NCBI GenBank assembly: GCA_016928995.1
Contig: JAFGJS010000066.1
Coordinates: forward strand, 1-16,440
DNA length: 16,440 nucleotides
Source: Candidatus Sumerlaeota bacterium
GTDB taxonomy: Bacteria; Sumerlaeota; Sumerlaeia; JAFGJS01
Reading direction: 5' to 3'
Part shown: piece by piece, positions 7,806 through 16,440 of the stretch
How positions within the stretch are numbered: position 1 is the first letter of the stretch
Layout: the number at the start of each line of letters is the position of its first letter
Notes under the pieces: model-generated
What the model was told of the DNA's origin: nothing
Database searches by the model: none
The model's input: only the letters and a program-made list of their open reading frames with translations
Position numbers and translations under genes: made by a program

Positions 7806-9110
7806 CTACTCTACGATCAATGAACCTGTCACGGCAGACTGATTAATATCATTTCCACTGTAATCCATATATCCTGTCGTTTTATATAAAAGAGATTTTA
7901 TTATAGCACGCACTCCTTCGCCACAGTTGCTAGCGGTGTTATTTCTGTCTATAAAGCCAGAGACTAATCTTGAATCTACTTTCGCAAAGTAACCATATTT
8001 GCAATTAGTAACATCGCTCTTGTATACTACTACCGTAGAATTGTAGTTTGATGTGATGCCTGTGCCGATATTTGAGATTTGAGCGATTCGAATATCCCCC
8101 TGACTGAAATCACTAACTAATACGCCCATTGAATCTACATAACTTGAGTCTTTATTGTGAATGTTTAGCATTACGACATCCTGGATATTAGCGAAGGAGT
8201 ACCAGCGAACATGAATCCCGAGAAAATTATATTCGAATTTGCAGTTTTTCACTGATATGGTTGAGCGTTCATATATGCCGATTGCTGCATATGTGGTGTA
8301 TTCAAACTGGATGCCTTGAATGGTCAGGTTGCTCTGATTTTCGATGAATATTCCGTATTCCCGGATTGCATTTGTTGGAGCGGCGGCATCTGCGCCGCTG
8401 ATAATTACAGTATCAGGAGCATCAACATTTCCATTAATCAGTATTTCCCTATCGCCTGCGACAAGTTTTTCACCGATCGATATTGATTCACGATAAATGC
8501 CAGGCAATACATTTATCGTTGCGTTTGTTTTCAGAATATCGGGCAGCAAATCCACTGCTGCCTGGATGGTTTGCTTGGCGGTGTCTGTAGTTAGGCCGTT
8601 GTTAGCGTCGTCGCCGTTTTCAGCGTCTACATACAACGTTATATCTTCATCGAATGACTGCTGACCCAGCAAGGCGGGATTCACGACGCGGCGGTCGGGA
8701 TTGAGGCGCTGGAATGGGGAACCGAGGTCGTGGCAGAACCAGACGCGCAGATAGATGCGTTCATCTTCATTAAACACAGTCGGAACCAACGGATCCATAC
8801 CGGTTAGCGTATCACCGATCACGACGTTGAAGAAGCCGTCGATCACCTGAGAGGTGATATAACCCGATGGCTCACTACCGGCCACACTCGTGCTGTCGTT
8901 GGACCAGTACGAAGTTAGGCCATTCTGGTTGACCAGTGCGAACTTGAAGTAGCCCGTGCCATCGAAGGGTGTGCCGTTGTGCTTCACCCGGCCGTTGTAG
9001 TTGAACTCCACCTCCTGCTGGGCGTGGGCGAAATTCGCCAGCAGCAGGATCAGCGCCGCCCACGTGATGAAAAACAAAGCCTTAGCGTTACTTCTCATGC
9101 TCGTGTTCAT
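7806..9110 (-). CDS. Secreted parallel beta-helix repeat protein
   Basis: 434-aa exported protein. A Sec signal peptide with hydrophobic core at about 11-26 ends in A-H-A (cleavage after residue 30). Residues 35-150 form a beta-rich N-terminal domain (F-N-Y-N-G-R-V opening), common in secreted proteins of uncultured environmental bacteria. From 159 the sequence has L-Y-V-D-A-E-N-G-D-D-A-N-N-G-L and T-I-Q-A-A-V, the usual entry to a right-handed parallel beta-helix, followed by irregular short strands with many Asn, Ser and Ile to the C-terminus. No catalytic residues can be named; such folds serve as glycan-binding or cleaving proteins, adhesins or surface structures. AGGAG (9120-9124 complement) sits 9 nt before the ATG; Met5 is a second possible start. 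A truncated paralog lies directly upstream on the same strand. Confidence 0.85.
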   Translation of the reverse strand: MNTSMRSNAKALFFITWAALILLLANFAHAQQEVEFNYNGRVKHNGTPFDGTGYFKFALVNQNGLTSYWSNDSTSVAGSEPSGYITSQVIDGFFNVVIGDTLTGMDPLVPTVFNEDERIYLRVWFCHDLGSPFQRLNPDRRVVNPALLGQQSFDEDITLYVDAENGDDANNGLTTDTAKQTIQAAVDLLPDILKTNATINVLPGIYRESISIGEKLVAGDREILINGNVDAPDTVIISGADAAAPTNAIREYGIFIENQSNLTIQGIQFEYTTYAAIGIYERSTISVKNCKFEYNFLGIHVRWYSFANIQDVVMLNIHNKDSSYVDSMGVLVSDFSQGDIRIAQISNIGTGITSNYNSTVVVYKSDVTNCKYGYFAKVDSRLVSGFIDRNNTASNCGEGVRAIIKSLLYKTTGYMDYSGNDINQSAVTGSLIVE

Positions 9111-9361: not shown

Positions 9362-10366
9362 TTAATCGTAGATCACTGAGCCATCGGTCGCTTGGATCGA
9401 TGTCGTATTTCCTGAATAAGTCACATAAAAATTAGCATAAGAAACGGTTGAATTGATGCGTGAACTGACCCCCAGATAGCAGTTTTTCGCTTCGCTATTT
9501 TTTGTGCCGCTCATGAAATACATTAGGCTGTTCATCCACATGCGAAAACCGATACGGCAATTATCGGCTGTTGATTCTCGGACAGTCACTCTGGACATAT
9601 AAGCGCAAAAGTAGGCAGATCCAGTATCTGTGCAAACAGTACGAATGACTGTTGCCATGCTGTTTTCGACTCGAATACCGTAAGTCTCGTCAGCATTGCT
9701 TGACGAGCTGCAATCGTTGTCGATCGTCACATCGGAAATATTTCCCGAAGTGTACGTTGTAAGTTGTATCCCTGTATGGTTCATTGCAAATTGGCAATGC
9801 GAAATGCTGATGGAACTGTAATCTGCGGCGCGTATGCCTAGTGTCAGGTAATATTCAAAGCGCATCCCCTTGACGTAAATTCTATTCAGTCTGCTGATAT
9901 TGAAACCAGTGGATCGCACTGGAACCGTCGGAGCCTCGGCATCCGCTCCACTGAAGATGACATTTTCAGGATGATCAATATTTCCGATAATGCTGATAGA
10001 AGCGTCTCCAACAACAGTTTTATCGCGAAAAACACCGCTTTCCCGATAAATGCCATCGAAAACTTGAATGGTGATGCTCTGCCGGCAAAGGGCCGGTATG
10101 AGATTCCAAGCCGCCTGGATGGTTTGCTTGGCTGTGTCCGTAGTCAAACCGTTATTGGCGTCGTTTCCGTTTACAGCATCCACATAGAGAATGATGTCTT
10201 CATTGCAGGATTGAATGCCAAGCAGCGCGGGATTGACTACGCGGCGATCGGGGTTGAGACGCTCGAATGGTGAAGCGAGGTTATGGCAGAACCAGACGCG
10301 GAGATAGATGCGTTCGTCTTCGTTGAACACCGTGGGGATTGTTGCCTTTTTGCCATCGGCATGCAC
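9362..10366 (-). CDS. Truncated beta-helix paralog lacking signal peptide, probable pseudogene
   Basis: 334-aa reading frame clearly paralogous to the gene at 7806-9110. Near-identical segments include P-T-V-F-N-E-D-E-R-I-Y-L-R-V-W-F-C-H, L-N-P-D-R-R-V-V-N-P-A-L-L-G and N-N-G-L-T-T-D-T-A-K-Q-T-I-Q-A-A; the later beta-helix part has diverged. Similarity begins at residue 11, matching residue 110 of the paralog. The signal peptide and the N-terminal domain are therefore missing, and the first ten residues come from sequence antisense to the HTH gene. The ATG at 10366 has no credible ribosome-binding site. Without a signal peptide the product could not be exported as its paralog is, so this is most likely a 5'-truncated remnant, although the rest of the frame is intact. 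Confidence 0.75.
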   Translation of the reverse strand: MHADGKKATIPTVFNEDERIYLRVWFCHNLASPFERLNPDRRVVNPALLGIQSCNEDIILYVDAVNGNDANNGLTTDTAKQTIQAAWNLIPALCRQSITIQVFDGIYRESGVFRDKTVVGDASISIIGNIDHPENVIFSGADAEAPTVPVRSTGFNISRLNRIYVKGMRFEYYLTLGIRAADYSSISISHCQFAMNHTGIQLTTYTSGNISDVTIDNDCSSSSNADETYGIRVENSMATVIRTVCTDTGSAYFCAYMSRVTVRESTADNCRIGFRMWMNSLMYFMSGTKNSEAKNCYLGVSSRINSTVSYANFYVTYSGNTTSIQATDGSVIYD

Positions 10367-10764
10367 AAGTCGCTAAGTTCCCTGACGCCAGATATCCAAA
10401 AAAATTGGTGACGCTGGGCGACCACCTGCGTAAGGTCCGGCTGGACAAAGGACTGTCACAACCGCAAACGGCGGATTCGTTGCTTGTGAGCGTGAGCGCC
10501 GTGCGCAGTTGGGAAGCCAATCGCTTCCAACCAGAAGTTCGGCACGTGCCGCGCATCCTAGGATTTTTGGGTTACAATCCGCTTCCCAATGGACCGGGCT
10601 GGCCAGAGCGGCTCTATCAAGCAAGAGCGCAGCTGGGGCTGACACAGGAGCAAATGGCCAAGCAATTGGGTGTGGGGCATTTTTCATATCAGAGTTGGGA
10701 GCGAGACATCCGTCAGCCTAGTGAAAAGATGCGGGCGCTGTTGGAGCAGAATGAGCAGGGATAG
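10339..10764 (+). CDS. Double Xre-type HTH DNA-binding protein, possibly 5'-truncated
   Basis: 141 residues counting from a TTG at 10339. Two helix-turn-helix modules are visible. The first (about 26-80) has T-L-G-D-H-L-R-K-V-R-L-D-K-G-L-S-Q and ends in F-L-G-Y-N-P. The second (about 89-135) has R-L-Y-Q-A-R-A-Q-L-G-L-T-Q-E-Q-M-A and S-Y-Q-S-W-E-R. This tandem layout, with a Y-P-K-x-x-x-T-L-G-D-H lead-in, occurs in a family of small predicted regulators, often present in several copies per genome; the target is unknown. No Shine-Dalgarno or ATG is found, and a minus-strand beta-helix gene fragment abuts the 5' end near 10340, so the true start may be lost. TTG 10405 or GTG 10408 are alternative starts. 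It could be non-expressed. Confidence 0.65.
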   Translation: MLPFCHRHAQVAKFPDARYPKKLVTLGDHLRKVRLDKGLSQPQTADSLLVSVSAVRSWEANRFQPEVRHVPRILGFLGYNPLPNGPGWPERLYQARAQLGLTQEQMAKQLGVGHFSYQSWERDIRQPSEKMRALLEQNEQG

Positions 10765-11204: not shown

Positions 11205-11459
11205 TCACGAAACAGGAATTCTTTCCGGGCAGTGCTCTGCAATTTCCCTTAATTGAATCAACCATTGCCCAGTTGGAAACACCTGATCGTCGCATTTATA
11301 TTCCTCGCGGAAAATATCAAAATAATATTGCACGCCATTTTGAATTTTTCCATCAGGAAATATGATAAACACCGCCGGTTTGCTTAGTTTTAAAAACTCT
11401 GTTATTTTATTCCTTGATTCCTCATCGTGGCAAATAACGCCCTTTTTCTCAATTTTCAT
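11205..11459 (-). CDS. Hypothetical protein, 84 aa
   Basis: Small soluble protein of unrecognised family, AT-rich compared with the core genes. It is basic at the start (M-K-I-E-K-K-G), with a hydrophobic strand P-A-V-F-I-I-F-P-D-G at 28-37 and two cysteines in the first 56 residues (10 and 56). The frame stays open upstream to 11666, but the ATG at 11459 is chosen because a strong AAAGGAGC (complement of 11468-11475) lies 9 nt before it. It stands alone between a gene remnant and a plus-strand promoter/RNA unit that starts about 95 bp upstream and reads away from it. No function can be offered. Confidence 0.55.
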   Translation of the reverse strand: MKIEKKGVICHDEESRNKITEFLKLSKPAVFIIFPDGKIQNGVQYYFDIFREEYKCDDQVFPTGQWLIQLREIAEHCPERIPVS

Positions 11460-11553
11460 TTTGAATAGCTCCTTTTTTGAAATATTTTCAAGGAGCCCTG
11501 TTTTTAACTTGACACGCCACGTTTCATTTATTAAAATTGATCGTTTTTTCCAC

Positions 11554-11581
11554 TTGACAGCTATACCGAAGTGGATATAAA
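11554..11581 (+). promoter_or_regulatory. Strong sigma70-like promoter for the orphan RNA unit
   Basis: Perfect -35 TTGACA (11554-11559), 16-bp spacer, and -10 TATAAA (11576-11581). The expected start is near 11588. No convincing coding gene lies downstream before the terminator at 11744-11784. Confidence 0.6.
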
Positions 11582-11587
11582 CTGTAT

Positions 11588-11784
11588 TTATTGTGGAGTT
11601 GACTGAACTCCACAGCATTGTGAAATAAGAAGTTACGGTACTTTTTGGACGTGGCCAACCCTCCATTTGTTGGCCCTAAAAAAAGCGTTGGCGCAGAAAC
11701 GGGAAGCAAAATGGGCTTCTTAAATTCTGTCGTTGGACGCTACAGACCTGCTTTGTTGTCTCTAGCAACGAGCAGGTCTTTTTT
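11588..11784 (+). ncRNA. Candidate structured small RNA, about 197 nt
   Basis: Bounded by a consensus-like promoter and an intrinsic terminator with no convincing gene between. Several perfect stems occur in order: TGTGGAGTT/AACTCCACA (11592-11600/11606-11614), GGCCAAC/GTTGGCC (11653-11659/11669-11675), then a longer-range AGCGT/ACGCT pair (11684-11688/11737-11741) that encloses GAAGC/GCTTC (11703-11707/11715-11719), and finally the terminator stem. The arrangement does not match tRNA, tmRNA, SRP RNA or a riboswitch I can recognise; the size resembles 6S RNA but the several separate hairpins do not. A 29-codon frame with a GGGAAG site (ATG 11711 to TAA 11800) overlaps the end and is an alternative reading. 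Expression is inferred only. Confidence 0.4.
11744..11784 (+). terminator. Intrinsic terminator on the plus strand
   Basis: Stem AGACCTGCT (11744-11752) / AGCAGGTCT (11771-11779), extended inward by GTTG/CAAC, followed by a run of T through 11784. It closes the orphan RNA unit. No coding gene upstream on the plus strand explains it. Confidence 0.8.
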
Positions 11785-12174
11785 ATGCAGCGAACATTAA
11801 TTTTGATCCATTTTTTTGGATACTGTCAAGAAAATTTTGAATAACCCGTGTAAATTAAAGCGGATAGCGCCAAACCGACTTCCCGGCTCTCATCGCTATG
11901 TGAAGAAATATTGTAAGTCACATTTTTGGAATGATCTATATTTATAGAGATATTTGCCATCCGTTTTTTCTTGAGTTTAACTCAAGTCTTCAGATGAATC
12001 TTCCCTGATCGGTTATCACAGATGCCGTAATGACTCCCCTTGTTCATCCTACTTGCGAGCGCTGGACTGAATACCGTCGCCGCCCGCCATCTAGCGACGC
12101 CGCCAAGCAGATCTTGTCTCCCTCAATATTAATGCTGAAGAAGCGATTGGCGCGTTAAATGTGGAAATTCAATA
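11785..12174. other. Mostly gene-free stretch with a 17-bp palindrome
   Basis: No gene can be supported with confidence. CTTGAGTT-T-AACTCAAG (11970-11986) is a perfect palindrome of operator-like form, but neither neighbouring gene starts next to it. A small GC-rich plus-strand frame (ATG 12030 to TAA 12156-12158, 42 aa, with an R-R-R stretch) lacks a ribosome-binding site and may be a gene fragment. ATCCA/TGGAT around a T-run (about 11806-11822) follows the terminator. Confidence 0.35.
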
Positions 12175-12588
12175 TTACTCTCTTCCCAGAAAATATGTTA
12201 ATCCCAAAGGATGTTCAGGAGTGTTTTGCTGTCGGATAAATATCCAATCATCATCATGCAACATCACTGCTTCCCAAACTAACAGGCCATAAAAAAGTTG
12301 CGCTTGTTCAAAGTCCTGCCCACAGGCTTCGTAAATCGGTTGATAGGGTGTGCCGGTCCAGTTGGCCCCCGGGATGAAACTGGAATTGAATATGCCGTTC
12401 TCTCCTTGCGCCTCTCCGCTTTCGATAGCTTGATTCATTACATGGAAAAGTGTTTCCATGATTTGTTCATGATCCGCATCGCTGAGCCTTCTTCGCCAGC
12501 GATTATAGTTTTGGCGATGTGGGATTCGTGTCTGTTGACGGCCATTAATGTCAAATAGCATGGGCATGATCCATACCGCTTTATCCAT
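12175..12588 (-). CDS. Conserved-looking hypothetical protein, 137 aa
   Basis: Soluble protein without signal peptide or membrane segment. It has dense, conserved-looking blocks: D-I-N-G-R-Q-Q-T-R-I-P-H-R-Q-N-Y-N-R-W-R-R-R-L-S (near 12-35), S-S-F-I-P-G-A-N-W-T-G-T-P-Y-Q-P-I-Y-E-A-C (about 69-89) and a helical F-Y-G-L-L-V-W-E-A-V-M, rich in Trp and Tyr. From memory, proteins of this pattern recur across bacteria as uncharacterised small proteins; a database search is needed to confirm this, and no function is assigned. The ATG at 12588 is preferred over a TTG at 12597; neither has a clear ribosome-binding site. A possible TATAAA -10 box lies about 25 bp upstream on the minus strand. It sits alone among remnants and hairpins, so it is probably accessory. 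Confidence 0.7.
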   Translation of the reverse strand: MDKAVWIMPMLFDINGRQQTRIPHRQNYNRWRRRLSDADHEQIMETLFHVMNQAIESGEAQGENGIFNSSFIPGANWTGTPYQPIYEACGQDFEQAQLFYGLLVWEAVMLHDDDWIFIRQQNTPEHPLGLTYFLGRE

Positions 12589-12700
12589 TGTCAGCAAGTA
12601 AAACTTGATTTTAAGAGTGTTTATATTGGTTCTGATGCTACTGTTTTTTATGGTTTTGGGGGATCAGCCTTGAATTCAGGAAATGACGAGGCGATTTGAA

Positions 12701-14416: not shown

Positions 14417-14442
14417 GGTTAAATAGAACTTTTGAGGGGCTA
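14417..14442. repeat. Left terminal inverted repeat of the IS
   Basis: It starts GGTTAAATAGAA and ends TGAGGGGCTA, matching the right end (15421-15445) with one gap and a few mismatches in the middle. The transposase stop codon lies inside it. Confidence 0.88.
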
Positions 14443-15370
14443 GTTTTCTCCTTTTAACAACTCAATAATGATTTTCTTAGATCTATTGTCATTAAGCCCT
14501 CTATGAACATTTAATTTGCTTTTTAAGACATTAAAATATCCATCCAATGAGTTAGTAGTATTAGGAATATTGAGTTCTGGATATTTTAGATAAGTAAATA
14601 AATATGGTAAATTAGTTTTTAGACTACGATAAGCAGATCGCAATCGCTTATGAGTATAATTCCATCGTCCTGTTTCAGGATTGATGGTTTTTTGTTTTAA
14701 AAAATCTTTCCATTTTTCGTACCACTGATTCAATTGTCTGGTAAATGATTCCTCATCAGCCCTGATTAAAGTGGCTGTTATTTCTTTTAATTCAATACTG
14801 GATTCTAATTTAGGATCGCTCGTCAAATATCTTAAGACTATTTGTGTTTGATGAAAGTGGCACATTTGGACTGGGATGTCACTAAATGCCTGTCTAACAC
14901 CCCTTTTACCGTCTAAAACGATAGCTTCAATTTTAAATCCATTCTTTTCCAGATGACTTCTTCCTTGCTGATAAATACTAACTTTTTCATAAGGAGCAAA
15001 CTTCCACCAAATATTCTTTTTTAAGTTTGGTTCTCTAAATACACATAGTCCTTTAACTCGAGAAAAGAAAGTGACATCAGCTACTATGACTAAGGATTGG
15101 GGATTAAGCTTTACTATACTTTTAACCTCTAATTCATCTAATTTTGTTTGTATCCATCTTGTACTTCGATTATACTTTCTGGCTAGACTAAGATATGTTT
15201 GCCGTTGCCAGACATATTGATTAAATAATTCATTTTTAAAGTTTCTATCTCTTTTTTTACTTTGAAATCTTTTACCACAATTTAAACATTTATATAGTTG
15301 TAAACCTCTTTGTCTGCCATTCTTTTTAACTCGATTATTTTTACAAAATAGGCATCTTTTTATTGGGCAT
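14440..15370 (-). pseudogene. IS256/MULE-type DDE transposase with apparent 1-nt frameshift near the start
   Basis: Minus-strand translation gives a continuous transposase-like frame of 317 codons, from just after a TAG at 15394-15396 to the TAG at 14440. No ATG, GTG or TTG occurs in its first 130 codons. An ATG at 15370 lies in another frame; deleting one A from the A5 run (T5 at 15357-15361) joins the two and yields 309 aa starting M-P-N-K-R-C-L-F-C. In that numbering a zinc ribbon has C6-x2-C9 and C28-x2-C31, then candidate catalytic D98 (V-A-D-V-T-F-F) and D153 (V-L-D-G-K-R-G), C-H-F-H at 170-173 and T-T-N-S-L-D-G near 271-277, where IS256 relatives often have Glu in place of Asp276. The extra A could be a mutation, an assembly error or a slippage site. 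Only the last 141 residues follow an in-frame ATG. Confidence 0.8.
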
Positions 15371-15420
15371 ATTAGTTTGTAGTTAGTTTTTATCTAAAAT
15401 ATAACATAAGTTAGTGTTTT

Positions 15421-15445
15421 TAGCCCCTCATTTTTTCTATTAACC
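15421..15445. repeat. Right terminal inverted repeat of the IS
   Basis: The reverse complement starts GGTTAATAGAA and ends TGAGGGGCTA, pairing with 14417-14442. The transposase reads inward from this end. Confidence 0.88.
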
Positions 15446-15454
15446 CAAATTATG
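15446..15454. repeat. Right target-site duplication of the IS
   Basis: CAAATTATG, identical to 14408-14416. Removing the IS and one copy restores a continuous AT-rich spacer. Confidence 0.85.
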
Positions 15455-15652
15455 GAAGATAGGCGATTTTTGAGCTTGAGTGCAAATTCTGCTTGAACTC
15501 GATGATGCCGTTCTGTTAGGTTAGCGGTGGACTATGGCATTGAGTTGTTTGCGGTCATCTATTAAGTTTGCAGATGTTTCGTTTTTGCCGATTTACACGT
15601 TTTTTTGTTTTCCCCGATAGTCATTTTAGAATCCATTTTGAAGGAGCCGGTC

Positions 15653-16440
15653 ATGCGTTTCGAAGCCGAACTTTCCCGTCCGCTGTTCCATAATTCTAAG
15701 GTGTGGATGATTCTATTTATCTTGTTTCTTCTGTCGCGAGGGGGGCAGGGGGCGACGTGGTCGGTGGGGAGCGGGGGGGATTTTGGCTCGCTCTCCGCAG
15801 CGCTGGCTTCGCCGTCGGTGGCGGAGGGGGATGTGCTGGAACTGCTGGCGGGGGCGCATGCGTGCGGGGCTTTGACGTGGACGAAGCGGGTGAGTATCAT
15901 GGGGGCGGAGGGCGTGCGGCCGGCGTTGCTTTTGCCGGGGACTTTGGAGGCGGCGTTCGATGGGGCGGGGTCGATCACGGGGGTGGATTTGCTGGCGTCG
16001 GGGGCGGTCAGCGGGGCGCTGGTGCGGGTGAGTGCGAGCGAGTCGGCGTTGACGTTGAGCAGCGTGGACATTGGGACGACGGGGACGGGTTCGGCGGACG
16101 TGGGTTTGGCGGCGGATGCTGGCGCATTAAGCTTGGAGGATGTGGCGGTTGCGGGCGATTTCGATTTGGGTTTGCGGGCGGGGACGTCGAGTTCGGCGGC
16201 GGGGAGCGTGGAAGGTTCGCAGGTGGATGTGGCGGTTGCGGGCGAGGCGCTGGAGGTTTGGGGTGCGCTGGCGTTGGCGGATTCGTCGGTGACGATCGCT
16301 GCGGGCGAGTCGCTGGGCGGTGCGGTGAACGCGGGCGGGGCGCTGCAGTTGGAGCGCTGCGAGGTGTTGGGCGAGTCGTTGGCGAGCGGGGGGATTCTGT
16401 TTGAGCTGGAGGCGCGGGGGACGACGGTCACGCTGGTGAA
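15653..16440 (+). CDS. Secreted repeat-rich surface protein, 5' part (runs off the window)
   Basis: The frame is open for 262 codons from the ATG at 15653 to the window edge. AAGGAG at 15641-15646 sits 6 nt before the ATG. A long signal peptide has a hydrophobic core W-M-I-L-F-I-L-F-L-L-S (18-28) and probable cleavage near G-Q-G-A (34). The mature part opens with W-S-V-G-S-G-G-D-F-G-S-L-S-A-A-L, a usual start for parallel beta-helix or Pmp/autotransporter-like passengers, and continues as Ala/Gly/Ser/Leu/Val-rich strands with quasi-repeats (V-D-V-A-V-A-G-E, E-D-V-A-V-A-G-D). Codon use is extreme for G at third positions (GCG, GGG, TCG, GTG, TTG), which also keeps long antisense frames open. 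No anchor domain is visible yet. The IS lies about 200 bp upstream; no promoter is clear in 15455-15640. Confidence 0.8.
   Translation, partial: MRFEAELSRPLFHNSKVWMILFILFLLSRGGQGATWSVGSGGDFGSLSAALASPSVAEGDVLELLAGAHACGALTWTKRVSIMGAEGVRPALLLPGTLEAAFDGAGSITGVDLLASGAVSGALVRVSASESALTLSSVDIGTTGTGSADVGLAADAGALSLEDVAVAGDFDLGLRAGTSSSAAGSVEGSQVDVAVAGEALEVWGALALADSSVTIAAGESLGGAVNAGGALQLERCEVLGESLASGGILFELEARGTTVTLV
15740..15779 (+). other. Poly-G tracts with G-quadruplex pattern early in the surface-protein gene
   Basis: Four G-runs of 6, 5, 4 and 7 (15740-15745, 15748-15752, 15766-15769, 15773-15779) fall in the codons around the signal-peptide cleavage site and encode Gly-rich sequence. Such runs can form a quadruplex in the coding strand or mRNA, and long homopolymers can slip during replication. 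Confidence 0.6.

What the first reader, a model, noticed from the sequence alone, without database searches (positions are those of the whole stretch)
11554..11784. Orphan promoter-structured RNA-terminator unit without a convincing gene
A TTGACA/TATAAA promoter and a strong intrinsic terminator frame about 197 nt on the plus strand, containing four further stems including a perfect 9-bp hairpin and a multi-branched segment. There is no good ORF and no known RNA family is recognisable. It sits in an accessory region among gene remnants, so it may be a new small RNA or the non-coding part of a mobile or defence element.
Basis: partly seen in the sequence, partly recalled or inferred. Interest (0 to 1): 0.62.

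Follow-up and report, generated by a model that had tools for sequence, protein, structure and literature searches.

The report
Orphan small-RNA gene, no relatives found
A roughly 200-base stretch has its own start signals, a very stable RNA fold and a stop signal, so it is probably a gene for a small regulatory RNA, but no relative was found, its function cannot be told from sequence, and it is an ordinary kind of thing.

Summary
On the + strand a TTGACA-16-TATAAA promoter (11554-11581), a second TTGACA-17-TAAAAT promoter upstream (11509-11537) and an intrinsic terminator (stem 11744-11779, then U6) frame about 197 nt. Its folding energy lies below every one of 200-300 dinucleotide shuffles (z about -5.3 to -5.7), the most extreme of the stretches sampled on the contig. 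Three hairpins plus the terminator are well defined; one proposed stem is uncertain (pair probability about 0.6), and the "multi-branched" part is a single long hairpin. Two hairpin loops are complementary over 6 bases (CCAUUU/AAAUGG), a possible kissing contact. No Rfam family matches; the genome has its own 6S RNA elsewhere. No related sequence was found in up to 386 genomes, in the phage, plasmid and E. coli records tried, or by exact-pattern scans of two contig collections, so covariation could not be tested. The 29-codon frame has no relative. Best reading: a stand-alone small-RNA gene in a lineage-specific intergenic region, most likely pairing with target mRNAs through its exposed A/U-rich segment. 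Transcription is unproven and the mechanism is inferred. New member of a known kind; low to moderate interest.

The parts
11509..11537 (+). upstream promoter-like site, TTGACA-17-TAAAAT (11/12)
11554..11581 (+). promoter-like site, TTGACA-16-TATAAA (11/12); predicted start near 11588
11588..11784 (+). predicted structured non-coding transcript, about 197 nt
   Evidence: fold z -5.3 to -5.7
11592..11614 (+). 5' hairpin: perfect 9-bp stem (11592-11600 with 11606-11614), loop GACTG; also a DNA palindrome at the predicted start
   Evidence: pair probability about 0.9-1
11615..11652 (+). weakly paired A/U-rich segment (alternative stem 11627-11646, probability about 0.6); candidate pairing or Hfq-binding region
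   Evidence: function inferred
11653..11675 (+). hairpin GGCCAAC/GTTGGCC; loop CCTCCATTT
11663..11668 (+). CCATTT, first half of a possible 6-bp loop-loop contact
11684..11741 (+). long hairpin with internal loops; apical loop AAAATGG
   Evidence: z -4.3 alone
11709..11714 (+). AAATGG, second half of the possible loop-loop contact
11744..11784 (+). intrinsic terminator, stem 11744-11779 and T6
11208..11459 (-). neighbouring divergent 84-aa orphan gene with a good ribosome-binding site (AAGGAG)

Best explanation
It is a stand-alone gene for a small structured non-coding RNA. Transcription from one or both tandem sigma-70-type promoters starts near 11588 (or near 11545) and stops at the intrinsic terminator near 11784. 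Shown from sequence: the signals, a fold far more stable than chance, and the lack of a coding signal. Inferred: that the RNA is made, and that it acts in trans by pairing its exposed A/U-rich segment (11615-11652) with target mRNAs, the hairpins giving stability and perhaps a compact core through a loop-loop contact, possibly with Hfq, which this genome encodes. I put the existence of such a transcript at about 0.75 and this specific trans-acting mode at about 0.35-0.4.
For: Fold below all shuffles, also without the terminator, and the most extreme of those sampled on the contig. The + strand folds better than the - strand (z -5.7 against -3.7), and G-U pairs in the stems favour the + strand. 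Two strong consensus promoters, both on the + strand just upstream. Terminator of -20.6 kcal/mol with T6, better than 300 local shuffles. No family for the 29- or 38-codon frames and no relative of the 29-codon frame in 193 genomes. The genome encodes Hfq and CsrA, so RNA-regulator machinery is present. Loop complementarity of 6 bases, chance about 0.002 for random loops of these sizes and 0.026 for permuted loops.
Against: No homolog, so no covariation and no sign of selection. No transcript data. The loop-loop contact was picked after seeing the fold and among several loop pairs, so its real significance is modest. The U tract is only 6 long. No target was identified; the duplex scan against the window gave nothing that stands out besides the trivial antisense strand.
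Confidence: 0.4

Rival explanations
1. Cis-antisense regulator of the divergent 84-aa gene (11208-11459, - strand): a leftward mRNA starting from a - strand promoter-like site at 11829-11800 would carry the full complement of this RNA in its leader, and pairing would attenuate it, as in plasmid copy-number control.
For: The - strand site TTGACA-18-CAAAAT (10/12) is at the right place and the - strand is also more structured than chance.
Against: The -10 of that site is weak and falls below a stricter threshold, the RNA does not overlap the gene's start, and the gene may have a nearer promoter. No replication gene is present.
Confidence: 0.2
2. Orphaned leader: a riboswitch-like or attenuator leader ending in a terminator whose downstream gene was lost by rearrangement.
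For: Multi-hairpin fold with possible kissing loops directly followed by a terminator; no convincing + strand gene for several hundred bases downstream.
Against: No Rfam riboswitch match; no anti-terminator pairing identified; no relative with an attached gene.
Confidence: 0.15
3. Small protein gene: the 29-codon frame 11711-11800 or another short frame is translated.
For: An ATG-started frame exists.
Against: It runs through the terminator, has no good ribosome-binding site and has no family or relative.
Confidence: 0.04
4. Chance or DNA-level feature: palindromes serving as protein-binding sites, without a functional RNA.
For: No conservation detected; the palindrome 11592-11614 sits at the predicted start, like an operator; an HTH gene lies about 0.8 kb away.
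Against: The fold remains extreme without the terminator, and promoters and terminator are correctly ordered on the same strand.
Confidence: 0.15

Closest known systems
Intergenic trans-acting bacterial sRNAs with intrinsic terminators (Hfq-dependent class)
   Same: Own promoter, 50-250 nt, hairpins, weakly paired A/U-rich segment, U tract; Hfq is encoded in the genome.
   Different: No target, no expression evidence; U tract of 6; no sequence relationship to a named sRNA.
6S RNA (RF00013)
   Same: Similar length (187 model positions against about 197 nt).
   Different: The genome has its own 6S on another contig (82.2 bits); the ends here do not pair and there is no central-bubble hairpin.
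Plasmid-type cis-antisense RNAs (CopA, RNA I, RNAIII of pIP501; from memory)
   Same: Strong promoter, hairpins, terminator, opposite to a possible leader.
   Different: No replication gene, and the opposing leader is conjectural.
Candidate structured RNAs found by comparative genomics (e.g. PMC2864571, PMC6429828; abstracts seen)
   Same: Structured intergenic RNA without known function.
   Different: Those rest on comparison of homologs; here there is a single sequence.

Membership tests
6S RNA | match to the RF00013 model | tested here: not met
   no match in the window; the genome's 6S lies elsewhere
6S RNA | one long hairpin with paired ends and a central bubble | tested here: not met
   separate hairpins, ends not paired into one long hairpin
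Hfq-dependent sRNA | intrinsic terminator with U tract | tested here: met
   stem and T6
Hfq-dependent sRNA | Hfq present in the genome | tested here: met
   PF17209, E 2.9e-24
Hfq-dependent sRNA | binds Hfq and pairs with targets | not testable with these tools
   needs pull-down or target assays
Any of 4227 Rfam families | score at or above gathering cut-off | tested here: not met
CsrB-type CsrA sponge | several GGA motifs in hairpin loops | tested here: not met
   no GGA in the hairpin loops, though CsrA is encoded
Retron, CRISPR or transposon guide RNA | adjacent reverse transcriptase, Cas or TnpB/IscB gene, or a repeat array | tested here: not met
   no such gene among the proteins scanned near the unit and no repeat array
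Conserved structured RNA class | homologs with covarying stems | tested here: inconclusive
   no homolog in 39 class genomes or 386 genomes in all

The most novel reading that the evidence does not exclude
The first known example of a new class of compact structured RNA with a kissing-loop core, present in an under-sampled lineage and not covered by Rfam.
Probability: 0.1. Interest if true: 0.5.

Novelty: new member of a known kind. Interest (0 to 1): 0.25.

Why it matters
If expressed, it adds one lineage-specific small RNA in a class of bacteria in which this genome has no close sequenced relative among those held. It matters beyond that only if relatives turn up that allow a covariation test; alone it shows that a simple promoter-fold-terminator search can pick out plausible RNA genes that conservation methods cannot reach.

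Tried and rejected
Core motif TTGGCGCAGAAACGG: several short blastn hits in relatives looked like a shared element, but inspection showed most to lie in what reads as coding sequence (L018 at the end of an rpsT-like gene; L003, L009 and L016 also in open frames), and the model R1 found nothing in L013, L005 or L029. The one exact 20-mer match in genome contigs (L029) lies inside an open 184-aa frame, and about 0.5 such matches are expected by chance. 6S RNA rejected. Two model builds failed from a miscounted structure string, one script ran before its locus file was present, and one protein query had a wrong frame. Neighbour genes did not help: no convincing class-level homologs of the 84-aa gene (one short match at E 0.06) and no viral or plasmid ones; the 140-aa gene has distant plasmid relatives, annotated only as hypothetical.

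Full report
What is there. The window is a whole contig (C109) of a 4.55-Mb genome in 161 contigs; the nearest genomes held are of the same class only. In the roughly 0.7-kb gap between an 84-aa gene on the - strand (11208-11459, preceded by AAGGAG) and a 140-aa gene on the - strand (12175-12597), the + strand carries TTGACA-17-TAAAAT (11509-11537), TTGACA-16-TATAAA (11554-11581) and, about 200 nt on, a terminator hairpin followed by six T (11744-11784).

Is it more than chance? Yes for each component. The stretch 11588-11788 folds at -75.7 kcal/mol against a shuffle mean of -51.9 (z -5.31, 0 of 200). For 11588-11784 z is -5.74 (0 of 300), without the terminator -4.11 (0 of 300), and the - strand scores less (-3.73). 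With only 40 shuffles each (z -4.6) it still ranks first among 496 stretches sampled on both strands of the contig. A perfect TTGACA with a -10 of at least five matches occurs only twice on the contig, both here; 0.9% of local shuffles hold one, none of 2000 hold two. The terminator beats all 300 local shuffles, though shuffles of the whole, more GC-rich contig sometimes reach its energy.

Anatomy. Pair probabilities give: a 5' hairpin 11592-11614 (perfect 9-bp stem), a weakly paired segment 11615-11652 with an alternative stem at probability about 0.6, a 7-bp hairpin 11653-11675, a long hairpin 11684-11741 with internal loops, and the terminator. The loops CCTCCATTT and AAAATGG share six complementary bases (11663-11668 with 11709-11714); the chance is about 0.002 for random loops and 0.026 for permuted ones. 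As this was noticed after folding and several loop pairs exist, it is a lead, not a result.

What it is not. No Rfam family. Not 6S, which is found elsewhere in the genome at 82.2 bits. No tRNA or tmRNA in the window. The 29-codon frame has no family and no relative in 193 genomes or in plasmids. No repeat array and no defence or mobile partner gene next to it.

Relatives. Blastn in 193 genomes, a covariance model in 39 class genomes (one 46-nt hit at E 0.3, taken as chance) and in 386 genomes (stricter filters), the whole gap in the class, phage, plasmid and E. coli records (one chance match), and exact patterns in viral contigs and genome contigs (one match inside an open frame) gave no homolog. 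The model rests on one sequence, so distant homologs would be missed. Covariation is untested.

How it may work. The genome encodes Hfq and CsrA. The exposed A/U-rich segment 11615-11652 would suit target pairing or Hfq binding; GGA motifs are not in the loops, which speaks against a CsrA sponge. A duplex scan within the window showed no target that stands out. A trans-acting sRNA is the default expectation for such a unit; cis-antisense control of the 84-aa gene and an orphaned leader remain open.

Verdict. A plausible, structured, stand-alone small-RNA gene; new member of a known kind; function not determinable here; interest 0.25.

Noticed in passing
14417-15446: 26-nt imperfect inverted repeats (77%) flank a region with an IS256-family (variant Zn-binding type) transposase fragment at 14440-14865 (-): probably a decayed insertion sequence.
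   Followed up: partly
8557-8783 and 10110-10336: 227-nt direct repeat, 80% identical, inside two neighbouring similar genes on the - strand; one of them (9362-10366) has a weak pectate-lyase-like match, so this is likely a tandem gene duplication.
   Followed up: no
12175-12597 (-): 140-aa protein without any family but with relatives (30-38% identity) on Pontibacillus, Priestia, Roseomonas and Exiguobacterium plasmids, all annotated hypothetical: an uncharacterised, widely spread family.
   Followed up: partly
10339-10764 (+): Protein with two helix-turn-helix domains, similar to phage-repressor and antitoxin regulators.
   Followed up: no
15562-16440: Strongly GC-skewed, low-complexity stretch open on both strands, near the contig end.
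   Followed up: no
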